DNA of 64,000 nucleotides from Arenicola marina (taxonomy: Eukaryota; Annelida; Polychaeta; Arenicolidae). Below are positions 29,201 to 60,300 of this stretch, piece after piece. The notes beneath the pieces are model-generated. The model saw only the letters and a program-made list of their open reading frames with translations. It made no database searches and had not been told where the DNA came from. Position 1 is the stretch's first letter; every line of letters begins with the position of its first letter. The stretch is from the NCBI GenBank assembly GCA_964019135.1, contig OZ025265.1:24837143-24901142 (forward strand). Reading direction: 5' to 3'. The position numbers and the translations under genes are program-made.

Positions 29201-32200
29201 TCACATTAAGTCAGTCTTATATTTTGGGCCCCCCCCCCCAACCCTTCCCCCTCCCCTCCTCCCCCGCTTTTACATGCGCCCCAAATAGCCGGAAGAGGCC
29301 GTTGTGCCGCCACCGGTCGTTGTCCTGCTGGCCAAGTCCTCATTGGTTGATAAGTATGACGTCAGCAGTGTGCGCAAAGTGCTCACGGGGGCTGCGCCGA
29401 CCAAACAGGAAGTGGAAGAAGAGTGTCGGGCAAGACTCGGAAACCCGGCGTTCGTTCAAGGTCAGGATCATTAAATTGAATTTCGTTTTCCTGCAAAAAT
29501 ACAAGGCGAGGTCTTTGGAAGCTGTCACAATCGTTTTAGTTACTTTTTTGAACAGACGGCAGGAGATACTTAGTAGGAATGCATGCTTCTGTTGTGGCAT
29601 TCGTGATTGCACAGATATGATTTAAACACGTGCGTTTGCACCGAATGAACCCCAAATGCAGTGGTTTCTATACTTTCTGGTGTCAAACAGATGTTTAATG
29701 ATGTATAGATATTACACTTTATACTGTGTACATGGACATCCGGATTCATGGAAAAGTAGTCTTCAGAATTGCCCCATAAACATATGGTGTATACAATCTC
29801 TATCTGGATTTTCGCAATTTCATTCGTACGACGAAAAGAAATGTTCCAATGCGTCATATAGCGGGAGCGGATAGGTTGGGGAGAGTGGGGAATCGGGAAG
29901 TTACGGATCCGCTTTATTGCGGCATCGATAAGAAACTGAACCCCGACCCCCCCGCCCCCTCGCTCAGACCCCTCTCTTCACTACCACCACCACCTTTTTT
30001 CAATATCCGGCTTTTTGTAGTCTACGGTATGTCGGAGGCCACTTGTGTTGTCACTTTGAAGAGGACCGAAGACGGACACCGGAAGCCTGCCAGCGTGGGA
30101 ACTGTCCTGCCGGGAAGTGAAGCCAAGGTCAGCGCTACTTATTTCGACATTGAAGATCCGCTATTTCTCTGTTATAAAATATGCAAATAAAGGCGAACGA
30201 TTAGATGAATTGTTTGTCTTAAACGTTGACCGGGAAATCTGACTATCGCCATAATTCGCTTACCAGGTCCTACATCGGGACCCAGAGATCCTTTGCTGTT
30301 AGAACTGCAAAAAAGGCGAGTAGAATCAAACGACGACTTATTGATATACGGACGCCCGTAGCAGTATGATGAATATAAACAGTTGTAATGAATTGATGCA
30401 TTCGCGGTAACAGAAGTAGCGTTAAGAGCTTCCTATGACTGAGGCATGAGTCTGTGACTTGCAGGTCATCGACCCGGCCACCGGTGAGATGATGGGACCG
30501 GAAGAACAGGGCGAGATCTGTCTGCGCGGGCCGCAAACCATGATGGGATACCTCAACAAACCGGACGCAACGGCCGCCATGGTGGACAGAGACGGCTGGA
30601 TTCACACTGGTAGGACGGGATTGACGCATATAGGCTCTGATTTTCTAACCTGAAAGACATACAAAAATTACTCCAGTTAAGGCAAAACTAATTACACAAT
30701 TGACATGGAGTGTTCATCTGTTTCTTGATGTTCTAATGCCAGCGCCGTGGGCCTTTTTAGACCAGCTCTTGACGCTCCAACGTGTTACTATAATGACTTT
30801 GATTTAACATCTGTGACATGACATTATTATTCCGTTGGGAAAAAAAGTTGTTAAAGTTTTGGTTCTTTCAGGCGATCTTGGGTGTTACGACAATGATGGT
30901 CATTTCTACGTGCTTGACAGGATCAAGGAACTCATCAAGTACAAGGGATATCAGGTGGGTATGCTGTAGCCAAGGACATCAGGTGGGTATGATGTAGACA
31001 GGGACATCAGGTGGGTATGATGTAGACAGGAATATCAGGTGGGTATGATGTAGACAGGGACATCAGGTAGGTATGATGTAGACAGGGACATCAGGTGGGT
31101 ATGATGTAGACAGGGACATCAGGTGGGTATGATGTATACAGGGACATTAGGTGGATATGGTGTAGACAGGGACACCAGGTGGGTATGATGTAGACAGGGA
31201 CATTAGGTGGATATGGTGTAGACAGGAACATCAGGTGGGTATGATGTAGACAGGGACATCAGGTAGGTATGATGTAGACAGGGACACCAGGTGGGTATGA
31301 TGTATACAGGGACATCAGGTTTGCTATGATGTAGACAGGGACATCAGGTGGGTATGATGTAGACAAAGACATCAGGTGGGTATGATGTAGACAGGGACAC
31401 TAGGTGGGTATGATGTAGACAAGGACATCAGGTGGGTATGATGTAGACAGGAACATCAGGGGGGTATGATGTAGACAGGGACATCAGGTGGGTATGGTGT
31501 AGACAGGGACATCAGATGGGTATAATGTAGACAGGGACATCAGGTGGCTATGATGTAGACAGGGACATCAGGTGGCTATGATGTAGACAGGCGCATTAAG
31601 TGAGTAAGAAGTAGACAGGAATATCAGGTGGGTATGATGTAGACACGGAAATCAGGTGGGTATGATGTAGACAGAGACATCAGGTGGCTATGATGTAGAC
31701 AGGTACATTAAGTGAGTACGAAGTAGACAGGGACACCAGGTTGGTATGATGTAGACACGGACATCAGATGGGTATGATGTAGACAAGGAAATCAGGTGGG
31801 TATGATGTAGACAGGGACATCAGGTGGGTATGATGTAGACAGGGACATCAGGTGGGTATGATGTAGGCAGGGACGTCAGATGGGTATAATGTAGACAGGG
31901 ACATCAGGTGGGTATGATGTAGACAGGGACATCAGGTGGCTATGATGTAGACAGGCACATTAAGTGAGTATGATGTAGACAGGGACATCAGGTGGGTATG
32001 ATGTACGCAGGGACGTCAGATGGGTATGATGTAGACAGGGACATCAGGTGGGTATGATGTAGACAGGGACACCAGGTTGGTATGATGTATACAGGGACAC
32101 CAGGTGGGTATGATGTAGACAGTGACATCAGGTGGGTATGCGACCGTCACCGGCAAATGCTCGACTTATATCAATACATAAAAACTGCAGTTGGTCGCGA

Positions 32201-33596
32201 GCCAAAATTATTCAAATGTGCACAAAATGACATCTTTGCTAGGTGGCGCCAGCAGAGCTGGAAGCCGTTATCCTCGAACACCCGGATGTAGCTGACGTGG
32301 GTGTGATTGGCGTCCCAGACAAGATGGCGGGCGAGCTGCCCCGGGCCTACGTGGTCAGACAGCCAGGGAGCAAGGTCACGGAGAAGGACATCGGACAACA
32401 TGTCGCAGGTACGTGTAGCGAAAACCGGCCAACGAACGCCCACAAAATCGTTAGGAAGAGACATGGATACTGCTTTTTTTGTGTAGTTTTATATATTTTT
32501 TATATTTACTTATTCCGTTGCTGTGACAACTATCAGTGCAATAATTCATTTATTATTTCCTGAACATCTGCTTGTTGACCCATTCTGAGTTCTCTCGGGC
32601 ATCATATGACCCAATGCCCCCTGCTTGAGTATGTAAATATACTATTACAAGGTTATTTAGGCATACGACCCGGCGGGCCGAGTGAACTATTGTCGGCGAA
32701 TCACAGAATTGAGGATTGTTCCTTACAAAGTGACGATAGTCAGAATGCCTTCCAGACAATATAGCTTTCGCCATCCGTAAATCGAAAATGATAATTGGCC
32801 GAGCATTCAACAACTAACATTGTACGATCAAAGGTCCGATGCTCTCCCAGTGAGCTAAATGACCGACCTATGCTCCGACACTAAGCCCCGCCCACGCTTG
32901 AGTCCTTTTTCTTCAGTCGTGAGTATGCAATTAACAATCATAGCTGATGGTAGGTACAAGTGAGAAGTACTCATCACTGAAACTGACAACAAAGTGACAT
33001 GCTGCTTTGTTGGCCCGACTTGTTTGTCCGACCTGGACGCACGTGGAAGAGCTTTTTATGGCACATGATTGTATAAAAGAAGCCGTGACGTCAGTGTATG
33101 ATTGACAGCCTGGATCGGTCTATTAGCATCACAGAGACCGGTCGCTCCTCCTTCTGACCTCGCAATCCACTACCCAGCCAAACTTGCCATAATAACACCC
33201 TTAATCTTGGTGAGGTGGTTTCTACTACTTATCTTGTGTGGTTGATCTATCAATTTATTTCATTAGTTTCCCTAAACTTCTTGCAAATAACAGTTACAGA
33301 ACTTCTGGAGTGACTTGACCAGTAACAATTCTAGTTGTGTACTCATAGACTATAACTCGTGTATGCTAATAATATCGAAAGGAACATTTCAAACAAATGG
33401 CAAATCAACAAATGTGTGTGTATGATGTATGTGTATGTGATTATCGAATCGTTTTTCTTTGTACTTAGATAAAGTGTCGCACTACAAGAAGCTGAGAGGA
33501 GGGGTGGTCTTCATTGAAGCCATCCCCAAGCTGGCCAGCGGTAAAATTCTTCGAAGGAATCTCCGTGACCGAGCAAAGCGAGAGGCAACCACTTGA
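26218..33596 (+). CDS. Acyl-CoA synthetase, 4-coumarate-CoA-ligase-like (left arm, copy A)
   Basis: Exons: 26218-26365, 26650-26857, 27149-27261, 28419-28802, 29289-29460, 30021-30127, 30465-30609, 30872-30954, 32243-32408 and 33469-33596 (TGA). All introns are GT-AG and all phases match, giving about 550 codons, the usual length for this ANL-superfamily group. Landmarks: AMP-binding loop [11 protein letters not shown] (about residue 204), VYGMSEA (about 342), GWIHTGDLG, hinge [12 protein letters not shown] (about 440), and [11 protein letters not shown] near the end with the catalytic lysine. The enzyme should activate a carboxylic acid to acyl-AMP and then acyl-CoA; the substrate is unknown. 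The first mapped exon begins in mid-codon after CAG and lacks an obvious start codon, so a short 5' exon is probably missing. The N-terminus is Arg-rich, a possible mitochondrial presequence; there is no SKL-type peroxisomal tail. Exon 4 carries a Ser/Thr/Asp-rich insert before the AMP loop. Confidence 0.9.
27418..27510. repeat. Short tandem repeat in intron 3 (left arm)
   Basis: Two to three units of about 41 bp containing GGTATGACATTTACGCCAAA. The same repeat is present in opposite orientation at 58757-58845 in the right arm. Confidence 0.7.
30946..32140 (+). repeat. 28-bp minisatellite made of splice-donor copies (left arm, intron 8)
   Basis: About 42 units of ACATCAGGTGGGTATGATGT followed by AGACAGGG. 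The array starts at the exon 8/intron 8 junction itself: the exon ends GGATATCAG and the intron starts GTGGGTATG, so each unit repeats the donor CAG|GTGGGTATG. It ends about 100 bases before exon 9. Common variants are GTAGGTATG and GTGGCTATG. Confidence 0.95.
32859..33123. mobile_element. Small MITE, ATAGACCGATCC family, copy 3 (intron 9, left arm)
   Basis: The right terminus GGATCGGTCTAT is intact and the left terminus is diverged (ATGACCGACCT). The interior matches copies 1 and 2. It lies in intron 9 of the left acyl-CoA synthetase and has an exact counterpart in the right arm at 51808-52073. Confidence 0.7.
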
Positions 33597-41165: not shown

Positions 41166-41331
41166 CTGCGACATGTTGTTCAATGTCCTTCTCCGTGACC
41201 TTGCTCCCTGGCTGTCTGACCACGTAGGCCCGGGGCAGCTCGCCCGCCATCTTGTCTGGGACGCCGATCACACCCACGTCAGCCACATCCGGGTGTTCGA
41301 GGATAACGGCTTCCAGCTCGGCTGGCGCTAC
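41166..41331 (-). CDS. Acyl-CoA synthetase exon 9, copy C (left arm)
   Basis: The exon is 166 nt with intact acceptor and donor and the same phase as exon 9 of copy A. It encodes [20 protein letters not shown], then [18 protein letters not shown], then [18 protein letters not shown]. One residue (G to E before QHV) differs from copy A. Introns around it are diverged from copy A, so it is a paralogue rather than a recent duplicate. Confidence 0.85.
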
Positions 41332-51325: not shown

Positions 51326-54300
51326 TCAAGTGGTTGCCTCTCGCTTTGCTCGGTCACGGAGATTCCTTCGAAGAATTTTACCGCTGGCCAGCTTGGGGAT
51401 GGCTTCAATGAAGACCACCCCTCCTCTCAGCTTCTTGTAGTGCGACACTTTATCTAAGTACAAAGAAAAACGATTCGATAATCACATACACATACATCAT
51501 ACACATACATTTGTTGATTTGCCATTTGTTTGAAACGTTCCTTTCGATATTATTAGCATACACGAGTTATAGTCTATGAGTACACAACTAGAATTGTTAC
51601 TGGTCAAGTCACTCCAGAAGTTCTGTAACGATTTTTTGCGTTATTTGCAAGCAGTTTAGGGAAACTAATGAAATAAATTGATAGATCAACCACACAAGAT
51701 AAGTAGTAGAAACCACCTCACCAAGATTAAGGGTGTTATTATGGCAAGTTTGGCTGGGTAGTGGAATGCGAGGTCAGAAGGGGGAGCGACCGGTCTCTGT
51801 GATGCTAATAGACCGATCCAGGCTGTCAATCATACACTGACGTCACGGCTGCTTTTATACAATCATGTGCCATAAAAAAGCTCTTCCACGTGCGTCCAGG
51901 TCGGACAAACAAGTCGGGCCAACAAAGCAGCATGTCACTTTGTTGTCAGTTTCAGTGATGAGTACTTCTCACTTGTACCTACCATCAGCTATGATTGTTA
52001 ATTGCATACTCACGACTAAAGAAAAAGGACTCAAGCGTGGGCGGGGCTTAGTGTCGGAGCATAGGTCGGTCATTTAGCTCACTGGGAGAGCATCGGACCT
52101 TTGATCGTACAATGTTAGTTGTTGAATGCTCGGCCAATTATCATTTTCGATTTACGGATGGCGAAAGCTATATTGTCTGGAAAGCATTCTGACTATCGTC
52201 ACTTTGTATGGAACAATCCTCAATTCTGTGATTCGCCGACAATAGTTCACTCGGCCCGCCGGGTCGTATGCCTAAATAACCTTGTAATAGTATATTTACA
52301 TACTCAAGCAGGGGGCATTGGGTCATATGATGCCCGAGAGAACTCAGAATGGGTCAACAAGCAGATGTTCAGGAAATAATAAATGAATTATTTCACTGAT
52401 AGTTGTCACAGCAACGGAATAAGTAAATATAAAAAATATATAAAACTACACAAAAAAAGCAGTATCCATGTCTCTTCCTAACGATTTTGTGGGCGTTCGT
52501 TGGCCGGTTTTCGCTACACGTACCTGCGACATGTTGTCCGATGTCCTTCTCCGTGACCTTGCTCCCTGGCTGTCTGACCACGTAGGCCCGGGGCAGCTCG
52601 CCCGCCATCTTGTCTGGGACGCCAATCACACCCACGTCAGCTACATCCGGGTGTTCGAGGATAACGGCTTCCAGCTCTGCTGGCGCCACCTAGCAAAGAT
52701 GTCATTTTGTGCACATTTGAATAATTTTGGCTCGCGATCAACTGCAGTTTTTATGTATTGATATAAGTCGAGCATTTGCCGGTGACGGTCGCATACCCAC
52801 CTGATGTCACTGTCTACATCATACCCACCTGGTGTCCCTGTATACATCATACCAACCTGGTGTCCCTGTCTACATCATACCCACCTGATGTCCCTGTCTA
52901 CATCATACCCATCTGACGTCCCTGCGTACATCATACCCACCTGATGTCCCTGTCTACATCATACCCATCTGACGTCCCTGCGTACATCATACCCACCTGA
53001 TGTCCCTGTCTACATCATACTCACTTAATGTGCCTGTCTACATCATAGCCACCTGATGTCCCTGTCTACATCATACCCACCTGATGTCCCTGTCTACATC
53101 ATACCCACCTGATGTCCCTGTCTACATCATACCCACCTGATTTCCTTGTCTACATCATACCCATCTGATGTCCGTGTCTACATCATACCAACCTGGTGTC
53201 CCTGTCTACTTCGTACTCACTTAATGTGCCTGTCTACATCATAGCCACCTGATGTCTCTGTCTACATCATACCCACCTGATTTCCGTGTCTACATCATAC
53301 CCACCTGATATTCCTGTCTACTTCTTACTCACTTAATGCGCCTGTCTACATCATAGCCACCTGATGTCCCTGTCTACATCATAGCCACCTGATGTCCCTG
53401 TCTACATTATACCCATCTGATGTCCCTGTCTACACCATACCCACCTGATGTCCCTGTCTACATCATACCCACCTGATGTTCCTGTCTACATCATACCCAC
53501 CTGATGTCCCTGTCTACATCATACCCACCTGATGTCCTTGTCTACATCATACCCACCTAGTGTCCCTGTCTACATCATACCCACCTGATGTCCTTGTCTA
53601 CATCATACCCACCTGATGTCCCTGTCTACATCATAGCAAACCTGATGTCCCTGTATACATCATACCCACCTGGTGTCCCTGTCTACATCATACCTACCTG
53701 ATGTCCCTGTCTACATCATACCCACCTGATGTTCCTGTCTACACCATATCCACCTAATGTCCCTGTCTACATCATACCCACCTGGTGTCCCTGTCTACAC
53801 CATATCCACCTAATGTCCCTGTATACATCATACCCACCTGATGTCCCTGTCTACATCATACCCACCTGATGTCCCTGTCTACATCATACCTACCTGATGT
53901 CCCTGTCTACATCATACCCACCTGATATTCCTGTCTATATCATACCCACCTGATGTCCCTGTCTACATCATACCCACCTGATGTCCTTGGCTACAGCATA
54001 CCCACCTGATATCCCTTGTACTTGATGAGTTCCTTGATCCTGTCAAGCACGTAGAAATGACCATCATTGTCGTAACACCCAAGATCGCCTGAAAGAACCA
54101 AAACTTTAACAACTTTTTTTCCCAACGGAACAATAATGTTATGTCACAGATGTTAAATCAAAGTCATTATAGTAACACGTTGGAGCGTCAAGAGCTGGTC
54201 TAAAAAGGCCCACGGCGCTGGCATTAGAACATCAAGAAACAGATGAACACTCCATGTCAATTGTGTAATTAGTTTTGCCTTAACTGGAGTAATTTTTGTA

Positions 54301-57300: not shown

Positions 57301-60300
57301 TTTTCGACGGAAAACAACGCACGCATGCGTACATAACATGCGATCCCTTCGGCTTTCCCCAGTGAAGGTCGACTTCAGGTGGATTTCACCAGCTCGTAAC
57401 AGTATGGGCTTCATATAGGACTTCGTCATTTTTTTCACGTGTGTGTTAAGAATAAGAGCTAAAGAGCTCGCTACGCTCGCTTTCATGCTGAACATATAAA
57501 ACAATCTAGGTGGCGCTACGCTCTTCGACCGCTTCTGTCACGAATCACCTTGAATGATAGTCAAATATTGAATAGCGCATAATAAACTGTTCTGCGTTTG
57601 ACTGAGAGCGTGTTTTAATACGCATACGCTGGGTTCGCACATAGTTGTAGCAATGCTCGGCGTACAATAGTCCAATAGATGTGTGCAGCGCCACCCTGGC
57701 GGGTGAGAGTGTGAATGTATGGAGGGTGTATACGACAGCTGAGACATAAAAGGCGCCTAGCGGACACATAACACGGCGTCTGGCGGAGAAATAACACGGC
57801 GCCTAGCGGAGACATAACACGGCGATCAGCGGAGACATAACACGGCGATCAGCGGAGACATAACACGGCGCGTAGCAGAGATATAACACGGCGCCTAGCG
57901 GAGACATAACACGGCGCCTAGCGGAGACATAACAAGGCGCCTAGCGGAGACATAACACGGCGATCAGCGGAGACATAACAAGGCGCCTAGCGGAAACATA
58001 ACACGGCGCCTAGCGGAGACATAATATGGCGCCTAGCAAAGACATAACAAGGCGCCTAGCGAAAACATAACACGGCGCCTAGCGGAGACATAACACGGCG
58101 CCTAGCGGAGACATAACACGGCACCCAGCGGAGACATAACCAGGCGCCTAGCAGAGACATGACAAGGCGCCTGGCGGAAACATAACACGGCGCCTAGCGG
58201 AGACACAACAAGGCGCCTAGCGGAAACATAACACGGCGCCTAGCGGAGACATAACACGGCGCCTAGCAAAGACATAACAAAGCGTCTAGCGGAAACATAA
58301 CACGGCGCCTGGCGGAGACATAACACGGCGCCTAGCGAAAACATAACAAGGCGCTCAGCGACGTGTGTCGAGGGCGGAGTGTACAGTTTACGCCCTTCGC
58401 ACACGGCTTTAATTTTTTTACGGCTCGGGATTCGGCAATTATATGAAAAGAAACAAGGAAGAAACAAAGAACACTTTCCATCACGAGGCACTTCACTACG
58501 GTAGACGTACGGTAGATATCCTTCTATATTACCATATACAGCTGAGGGCACAGGCGCCGCAGATCGACTGACACAGGCCGGGAGGGGGGGGGGGTCTCGC
58601 ACCGCTATGTAGGCGGTGCGCGACCCCCCCCCCCCCCCCCGGCCTGTGTCAGTCGATCTGCGGCGCCTGTAGCTGTGGTGTCTCGGTATAAGCATCGCAA
58701 TAAGTGGCCGCCAAGTCGGCATTTGTTGAACAAAGACACTCTCTCTGCATCGACTTCAGCGTAAATGTCACACCCTCCCTCAATCGACTTTGGCGTAAAT
58801 GTCATACCCTCCCTTCATCGACTTTGGCGTTAAAGTGTCATTTAAGAATCACCGCCCCCCCCCCCCCAACACCTTCCCCCGTCTTGGATGTGTCGTGCCA
58901 AACGAGTTGCCTTCAACGAGTTTCAGGATGACGTGAGTCCTGTGACTTACAGTGTCATCGACACACCCAACGTTAACGTTAGTGTCTTTGTTGGCGTAAC
59001 ATTGAGCCTCACCTTCAGATTGTCTTCTACTGACGCTTGTTTCAGCACGGAATGATACTCCGGGTCGGCCAACACAAACTTAGGCTTGTTGTCTTTGAAC
59101 TCGCCAAAACAGTGCCTCATTTCATCTGAATAATGATACGATACAGTAGATATAAGTACACTTGTAGCGCAAAGACATGGAGGAGTGGAGTATATAGTCG
59201 TATTTAGAGAGGATAGGATAGTTGAGTGGATCATCCACTGGCAAGTAATCCACTCCATGTGGTCTAGTCCACAACACATGTACATGTTTATATATCCTAC
59301 ACTTGCGCTACACTTATTACATTGATATGTCTCGATCAAGACCGCGATATATATATATATATATTTATATATAACCTTTATTTATTTTACGAGGTTCACA
59401 ACAGCGAATTCACATATAAATGTTCACCTCGGATAGCACAAACAGAAGTGTAATTGATCAACAGCAACGCAAATACAGAAAAAAATCAGTCATTTGACCT
59501 AATTGAACGACCGGGCAATAATCAGTTTGACATCTTAAGAAAAACTAATACGAGAAACCTTTGGTACTGAATATGTAGCGAATAATAGATTGAAACATTA
59601 ATGTATTATCTTCAATGGTAAATCCTGATGAACCGTGGAAGAGCAGGTCGCACATGATGTCATATATAGTTGTACAGGCTCATAATGCCTATAAAACCCT
59701 GCCAGATCAAAGTAAATGCCACTTGATATATCTGTGACACGCCAGAACTTACACATAGTGTTTGCTGGGTTCACAAGACAGACAGCGCCCCCTGTCGACA
59801 GCGCGCCCAGCAGACCGATGACGTAATCCGCCGAGTTGTGTTTACATATAACCATCGTCTCGCCTTTGCGCATGCCCAGCTGACTGAGGCCATATCCGGT
59901 TCGTTTGGACAAGTCGATGACCTCTTCGAAAGTATAGGTTCGATTTGTCCCTTTATCAATCTGAAGTTTACACAACGCCCAAGAAATATAGCGTAGACAG
60001 GTCAACTTTTCAGTTTTCAAATACCTACTTGGGAATAAATAATGAATTTCATATATGTTGTTAATTCGCTTATTTAGTAACAACTTATAATTCGTATCTG
60101 CAGTTTAAATTACAGCAAAAGGAACAATATTGAGACAATATTGAGATGTAATATTTTGATGACGTACGGTGTATATAAAGGGATGTTGTACTTTGAATAG
60201 TAAGAGAAAACCCGACGTTCCTCGATATCCAAGATTGGAACATACTCACACCCAATCTATGGCTATGTCGCATCCATCTGCCTGGCCTGGTGCCACGGCC

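What the first reader, a model, noticed from the sequence alone, without database searches (positions are those of the whole stretch)
30946..32140. Minisatellite seeded by a splice donor: about 40 tandem 5' splice-site copies in intron 8
The exon 8 end and donor (GGATATCAG|GTGGGTATG) are the first unit of a 28-bp tandem array in which nearly every unit repeats CAG|GTGGGTATG. The spliceosome therefore meets dozens of equivalent donors in a row, with the real one at the array edge. Some units carry GTAGGTATG, arguably a better donor. Both arms keep the array. Known: tandem duplication of AGGT segments has been proposed as a way to make introns. This looks like the repeat-expansion version of that process, which I have not seen described at this scale.
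Basis: partly seen in the sequence, partly recalled or inferred. Interest (0 to 1): 0.85.

Follow-up and report, generated by a model that had tools for sequence, protein, structure and literature searches.

The report
Repeat arrays grown from splice sites
In this animal genome, short DNA repeats have grown out of the point where a gene's exon ends and its intron begins, leaving dozens of look-alike splice sites in a row; this is seen in several unrelated genes and apparently twice in one gene family, and in the gene studied here it lengthened an intron that already existed rather than making a new one.

Summary
The array is real: 28-bp units, 42.7 copies at 30944-32140 and 43.7 copies mirrored at 52792-54016. 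It starts 11 nt inside exon 8; 23 of 43 left-arm units carry the identical donor. "Seeded by the donor" holds; "making an intron" does not. Of 36 gene copies chosen because exons 8 and 9 are split here, 27 have the intron without a donor array.

The mode recurs. Four distant relatives carry an array at the same junction whose unit copies their own last 22-23 exon bases (exact in two, one mismatch in two) plus six intron bases; a short-alignment tree rejects one clade (AU p = 0.004). Of five other donor-bearing arrays, all on C1, in a capped list, three begin at a coding exon's donor (ALDH1L1-like, HDAC6-zinc-finger-like, lustrin-like); two starts were not seen.

Best reading: tandem duplication across the junction, tolerated because the first donor still works, then minisatellite growth with mostly neutral decoys. 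Later donors would bring a stop or frameshift in four of five gene cases. Human IFI6 is the closest precedent. No RNA data were available.

The parts
30872..30954 (+). exon 8 of the left-arm acyl-CoA synthetase/luciferase-like gene, ending ...[10 protein letters not shown], phase 0 at its end
   Evidence: sequence; tblastn coordinates; luciferases and 4-coumarate-CoA ligases in PDB; PF13193 above its cut-off for the exon 7-9 peptide
30944..32140 (+). 28-bp donor-bearing tandem array, 43 in-register units, first 11 nt inside exon 8
   Evidence: TRF; unit walk
30955..30963 (+). first donor GTGGGTATG, the one that keeps the reading frame
   Evidence: sequence; read-through stop at codon 5 for any later donor
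30955..32242 (+). intron 8, 1288 nt, most of it array
32141..32242 (+). unique 3' part of intron 8; the TATG before it (32137-32140) fits a deletion junction when compared with L047
   Evidence: 90% identity over 110 nt to the L047 intron tail
32243..32408 (+). exon 9, VAPAELEA...
52792..54016 (-). mirror copy of the array in the right arm, 44 in-register units
   Evidence: TRF; unit walk
54006..54088 (-). exon 8 of the right-arm gene copy (inner edge from tblastn; outer edge by mirror of the left arm)
52690..54005 (-). intron 8 of the right-arm copy, 1316 nt
52525..52689 (-). exon 9 of the right-arm copy (matched part)

Best explanation
A tandem duplication happened across the exon 8/intron 8 boundary of an acyl-CoA synthetase (luciferase-like) gene and then expanded into a minisatellite. 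The first copy keeps the exon end and the working donor; the later copies lie in the intron and are removed with it, so the event is tolerated and only lengthens a pre-existing intron. The extra donors are decoys that mostly drift and homogenise like the rest of the unit. The same kind of event occurred in other genes of this genome. Shown by sequence: array position, exon-derived unit, the intron being older than the array, recurrence. Inferred: that the first donor is the one mainly used, that growth was by slippage or unequal exchange, and that the decoys are neutral.
For: Array starts 11 nt inside exon 8 in the window and 23 nt inside in L069-L072. 27 of 36 split-gene copies have the same intron without a donor array. 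L069 and L070 units equal their own exon's last 23 nt plus GTCAGT, L071 and L072 with one mismatch. The two array groups are separate clades; one clade rejected, AU p = 0.0038. ALDH1L1-like exon: 19 exon nt copied, 39-bp unit. HDAC6-zinc-finger-like exon: 22 nt copied, 50-bp unit. Lustrin-like exon: array begins at the donor, only CAG shared. GT positions diverge about like positions outside the donor: Wr 0.047 against 0.060, L070 0.045 against 0.046, L071 0.062 against 0.059; L048 0.000 against 0.051. Any later donor gives a stop at codon 5 in the window gene.
Against: No RNA was seen, so use of the first donor is not shown. In the window's own group only 10 of the last 11 exon nt match the unit (9 of 11 in L048), and the rest of the unit cannot be traced to the exon. 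Taken over the whole donor (-3 to +6), units diverge more than elsewhere in 3 of 4 arrays: Wr 0.075 against 0.060, L070 0.101 against 0.046, L071 0.115 against 0.059; L048 goes the other way, 0.022 against 0.051. In L070 and L071 this is mainly a GTAACT variant, which pairs with U1 as well as GTCAGT does, but strict neutrality is not shown. Both acyl-CoA synthetase groups have period 28, which independent origins do not predict. The tree rests on 76 columns and the L069-L072 branch is long (0.59). L048 has a shifted frame at the start of exon 8, so its splicing may not be under selection.
Confidence: 0.76

Rival explanations
1. Intron birth by repeat expansion: duplication of an AGGT segment in an exon made this intron.
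For: The junction reads CAG|GT in exon context, and more distant relatives match across this site in one piece (for example C10 at 42% identity, query 2-71), so the intron was gained or lost at some deeper point.
Against: 27 of 36 split-gene copies have the intron at the same phase-0 site with no array there; the 36 were picked for being split, so they cannot speak to the intron's birth, only to its being older than the array. The arrays are confined to two clades.
Confidence: 0.04
2. One ancient array in the ancestor of the whole family, kept in two clades and lost in the others.
For: Both clades have period 28, and in both the unit crosses the same junction.
Against: The units differ and each fits its own exon end; a single clade is rejected (AU p = 0.0038, on 76 columns); it needs several losses that leave no repeat at the donor.
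Confidence: 0.16
3. Regulatory device: decoy donors catch U1 and divert a fraction of transcripts to stop-containing, degraded forms, with array length as the dial.
For: 24 of 42 left-arm decoys pair with U1 as well as or better than the true donor; later donors give early stops in the window gene, L069-L072 and the lustrin-like gene, and a frameshift or stop in the HDAC6-like gene; copy number differs between near-identical copies, 43 and 44 units.
Against: GT positions are not conserved more than the rest of the unit in Wr, L070 and L071 (L048, with none of 25 changed, is the exception); 27 of 36 copies do without.
Confidence: 0.12
4. Protein repeat: downstream donors add repeat-coded residues, as reported for IFI6.
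For: In the ALDH1L1-like gene the 39-bp unit is in frame and open for 192 codons of the part read.
Against: Excluded for the window gene: 28 is not a multiple of 3 and codon 5 is a stop.
Confidence: 0.02
5. Assembly artefact.
For: Long tandem arrays are hard to assemble, and the window is a large inverted repeat (mirrored rows).
Against: Copies differ by whole units and by scattered point changes, and the same architecture occurs on C1, C2, C8 and C20. Reads were not available.
Confidence: 0.03

Closest known systems
IFI6 / 6-16 minisatellite (Turri, Cuin and Porter 1995; title seen in reference lists, and one sentence in PMC4526556)
   Same: A minisatellite whose units supply several splice donors; PMC4526556 says that two downstream repeat units serve as donors, giving three mRNAs.
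   Different: IFI6 units are short (12 bp is recalled, not seen) and alternative donors encode isoforms. Here units are 28-50 bp, decoys mostly lead to stops or frameshifts, the window array has 43-44 units, and several unrelated genes of one genome have such arrays.
[quoted passage not shown] potato RdRp case, passages of PMC4974935)
   Same: Tandem duplication of a segment holding or crossing a splice site; the potato case crosses an existing intron-exon boundary.
   Different: There a new intron results from one duplication across the 3' side of an intron. Here the 5' side is duplicated dozens of times and no new intron is seen.
Fission-yeast multiple duplication of a 24-bp AGGT exonic segment (as cited in PMC4974935)
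   Same: Several tandem copies of a short AGGT unit with an intron across them.
   Different: Units are exonic and few (introns cross four and two copies); here the unit crosses a pre-existing junction.

Membership tests
Minisatellite supplying multiple splice donors (IFI6 kind) | tandem array begins at an exon's donor and its units repeat that donor | tested here: met
   TRF start 11 nt inside the exon; 38 of 43 and 40 of 44 units keep GT
Minisatellite supplying multiple splice donors (IFI6 kind) | more than one unit is used as a donor in RNA | not testable with these tools
   no RNA data
Minisatellite supplying multiple splice donors (IFI6 kind) | downstream donors keep an open frame (my reading of the isoform claim, not a stated criterion) | tested here: not met
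   stop at codon 5 in the window gene; of the five gene cases only the ALDH1L1-like one stays open and in frame
Intron gain by tandem duplication (Rogers) | intron absent in relatives without the duplication | tested here: not met
   27 of 36 split-gene copies have the intron and no donor array
Intron gain by tandem duplication (Rogers) | unit contains AGGT and derives from the exon | tested here: inconclusive
   AGGT is present and part of the unit is exon-derived (23 nt in L069 and L070, 10 of 11 nt in the window), but the unit also holds intron sequence
ANL superfamily acyl-CoA synthetase / luciferase-like gene (host gene) | AMP-binding C-terminal domain and luciferase-like alignment through the exon 8/9 junction | tested here: met
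   PF13193 50.7 bits against cut-off 24.5; best PDB match 5.5e-52; PF00501 on this part 27.3 bits, below its cut-off 29.9
ANL superfamily acyl-CoA synthetase / luciferase-like gene (host gene) | enzyme activity or substrate | not tested
   sequence only

The most novel reading that the evidence does not exclude
Junction-crossing duplication is a standing, genome-wide route by which this lineage lengthens introns: donors are captured into minisatellites about as freely as other sequence, and the resulting rows of decoy donors make splicing efficiency depend on copy number, giving fast-evolving control of gene output through stop-containing transcripts.
Probability: 0.12. Interest if true: 0.85.

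Novelty: new variant of a known kind. Interest (0 to 1): 0.62.

Why it matters
It asks how the spliceosome picks one donor among dozens of near-equivalents only 28 bases apart, a natural experiment on exon definition and 'first come, first served' choice. It shows a route of intron lengthening that starts in coding sequence, seen in several genes of one genome. Because near-identical copies differ in unit number, and relatives have none, the effect of decoy number on splicing can be tested directly.

Tried and rejected
Tried: whether the window unit's first 16 bases also come from the exon. They do not reach significance (shuffling only the head: 523 of 5000 as high for the consensus, 2406 and 3031 of 5000 for the first units of Wl and L047). 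Shuffling the whole unit gives 1, 71 and 112 of 5000, driven by the ten bases before the donor.

Tried: whether donors attract arrays. Counting CAGGTRAGT, 4284 triple hits against 27868 single hits (15.4%) compare with 1482 against 11198 (13.2%) for the reversed pattern. Counts are of hits, not arrays, so a few large arrays weigh heavily, and the tool calls repeat counts lower bounds. No clear attraction; the motif sits in arrays about as often as its mirror image.

Tried: selection on decoys. GT alone changes about like the rest of the unit in Wr, L070 and L071 and not at all in L048 (25 units); the donor as a whole (-3 to +6) changes more than the rest in Wr, L070 and L071 and less in L048. 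Left open.

Of the five donor-bearing arrays in the capped list, all on C1, three start at an exon donor. C1:1094676 proved to be a minority variant in a 42-bp array whose usual motif there is CAGATAAGT (882 pattern hits), start not seen. C1:22498674 runs on to at least 22503757, start not seen. Neither is counted as donor-seeded.

Rows left out: L073 (exon 8 only) and L074 (exon 9 only) were not paired. One search listed 97 matches; I took the copies with separate exon 8 and exon 9 hits near each other, so being split is a condition of entry. Not followed: the single-piece matches across the junction, two exon 9 copies at 41167 and 43642 in the window, and exon 8-only matches near C20:27.2-27.4 Mb. 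Eight alignment columns at the end of exon 8 were dropped before the tree so that the repeat could not drive it.

One search stopped with an error after the ALDH1L1-like case; the HDAC6-like and lustrin-like cases were done.

Literature: searches listed no survey of donor-seeded arrays; the library lacks most subscription papers. The 1995 paper itself (PMC306954) and a 2004 gene-family paper (PMC343271) are not held.

Full report
What is there. The window lies on contig C20 of an unnamed 867-Mb genome; I take it for an animal from its gene content. A 28-bp array of 42.7 copies occupies 30944-32140, and a mirror copy of 43.7 copies lies at 52792-54016. The gene is an acyl-CoA synthetase of the luciferase / 4-coumarate-CoA ligase kind: the joined exon 7-9 peptide matches an ancestral-luciferase structure at 5.5e-52 and Pfam AMP-binding_C above its cut-off. 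Exon 8 ends ...KYKGYQ at 30954 and exon 9 starts VAPAELEA at 32243. The array begins 11 nt inside exon 8. In the left arm 38 of 43 units keep GT and 23 of 43 carry the identical donor; in the right arm 40 of 44 and 25 of 44.

Is the intron new? Not with respect to the array. I compared 36 exon 8/exon 9 pairs: the two window arms and 34 others. They were picked because one search showed exons 8 and 9 as separate neighbouring hits, so that all 36 are split here is a condition of entry; that the split is at the same codon, in phase 0, is a result. TRF finds an array crossing the donor in 9 of 36: the window pair, L049, L047, L048 and L069-L072. In 27 of 36 there is none at the donor; four of those 27 have other repeats deeper in the intron. 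So the array was added to an existing intron. More distant family members match across the junction in one piece at 30-42% identity (for example C10), so how the intron itself arose is a separate question not addressed here.

A second, cleaner case in the same family. L069 and L070 (C8) and L071 and L072 (C2) have arrays whose unit is CATCAAGTACAAGGGTAACCAG|GTCAGT, the end of their own exon 8 plus the six first intron bases, starting 23 nt inside the exon. The match is exact in L069 and L070 and has one mismatch in L071 and L072. With the repeat-bearing columns removed, the two array groups fall in separate clades; one clade for all nine is rejected (AU p = 0.0038). The tree has only 76 columns and this branch is long. 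Two origins are the simplest reading, but both have period 28, which I cannot explain.

Other genes. A whole-genome pattern of three CAGGTRAGT donors spaced like a minisatellite gave 4284 hits against 1482 for the reversed pattern. The listed places (a capped list) come from five arrays, all on C1. Three start at a coding exon. An ALDH1L1-like exon ends FRYFAGWCDKIQ| (PDB match 1e-24; Aldedh above cut-off), with 19 exon bases in its 39-bp unit. An HDAC6 zinc-finger-like exon ends ENWVCLSCHQ| (7.9e-6; zf-UBP 0.014 and below its cut-off), with 22 exon bases in its 50-bp unit. A cysteine-rich lustrin-like exon (6.5e-5 but below its cut-off) is followed by a 34-bp array that begins at the donor and shares only CAG with the exon. 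Of the other two, one is a minority variant in a much larger array and the start of the other was not reached. The ratio of motif to reversed motif is 2.5 for single sites (27868 against 11198) and 2.9 for triples, so arrays hold donors roughly in proportion to how many there are; counts are of hits, so this is a coarse test.

How it works. The simplest model is a tandem duplication across the junction followed by slippage or unequal exchange. The first copy keeps coding sequence and donor in place; everything after it is intron. Are the later donors neutral? GT positions change about as much as positions outside the donor (Wr 0.047 against 0.060; L070 0.045 against 0.046; L071 0.062 against 0.059), with no change at all in L048. 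Over the whole donor, -3 to +6, three of four arrays change more than elsewhere (0.075, 0.101 and 0.115) and L048 less (0.022 against 0.051). In L070 and L071 the excess is mainly a GTAACT variant whose U1 pairing equals that of GTCAGT, so I see no clear sign of decoys being kept or removed. The decoys are good: 24 of 42 in the left arm and 27 of 33 in L070 pair with U1 as well as or better than the first donor (recalled U1 letters). Using a later donor would bring a stop at codon 5 in the window gene, 8 in L069-L072 and 4 in the lustrin-like gene, all within the first unit; in the HDAC6-like gene the second donor shifts the frame and later ones meet a stop at codon 18; only the ALDH1L1-like unit stays in frame, open for 192 codons. 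So the first donor is presumably the one used; that is inference, since no RNA was available.

The far edge. In the window the array ends GTGGGTATG|CGACCG, which looks like a last original donor. Relatives suggest otherwise: L047 and L048 share intron sequence after their arrays (aligned pieces of 285, 267 and 54 nt at 79-82% identity, spread over some 835 nt of L047), and L047 then reaches the window's tail through ...GGC|TATGCGACCG (90% identity over 110 nt); L048's tail has diverged and does not show it. The window copy therefore most likely lost about a kilobase by a deletion joined at TATG.

Against known things. The human IFI6 (6-16) minisatellite is the precedent for many donors in a row; I know it here from titles in reference lists and one sentence in PMC4526556, not from the paper itself. 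The AGGT-duplication model of intron gain (passages of PMC4974935) shares the duplication but predicts a new intron, which is not seen. What appears new, as far as seven answered literature searches show, is the recurrence in several unrelated genes of one genome and apparently twice at the same exon of one family, with units that include up to 23 coding bases.

Limits.

Noticed in passing
L083 (C1, from about 605783 to at least 612276): ALDH1L1-like gene with an array of more than 6 kb starting at the exon donor; unit 39 bp, in frame and open for 192 codons of the part read, so later donors could add 13-residue repeats to the protein.
   Followed up: partly
L114 (C1:2204162-2205620): HDAC6-zinc-finger-like exon whose last 22 bases and donor form a 50-bp array.
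   Followed up: partly
L069-L072 exon 8 end: The array-bearing genes read KGN or KGS at exon 8's end, where most of the other compared copies have an aromatic residue (KGY, KGF, KAF; others KGS, KGL, KGH); array units may have converted the exon.
   Followed up: no
L063, L075-L078 (C20:27.26-27.41 Mb): Five paralogues have a GC donor (CAG|GCGAGT) at the same intron.
   Followed up: no
L048 exon 8 (C20:24929 kb): Frame is shifted at the start of exon 8 in this array-bearing copy; it may be a pseudogene.
   Followed up: no
window 41167 and 43642: Two further exon 9 copies in opposite orientation near the centre of the inverted repeat, with no exon 8 match listed beside them.
   Followed up: no
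C1:1090055-1094700 and beyond: A 42-bp array with 882 pattern hits (up to 3 mismatches), about 37 kb if contiguous, usual motif CAGATAAGT in the part read, in which CAGGTAAGT is a minority variant.
   Followed up: partly
window 57737-58354: A 23-bp array of 27 copies that TRF lists in the right arm only, so the two arms seem to differ by whole arrays.
   Followed up: no
acyl-CoA synthetase arrays of C20 and C8/C2: Both apparently independent arrays have the same 28-bp period at the same junction; unexplained.
   Followed up: partly
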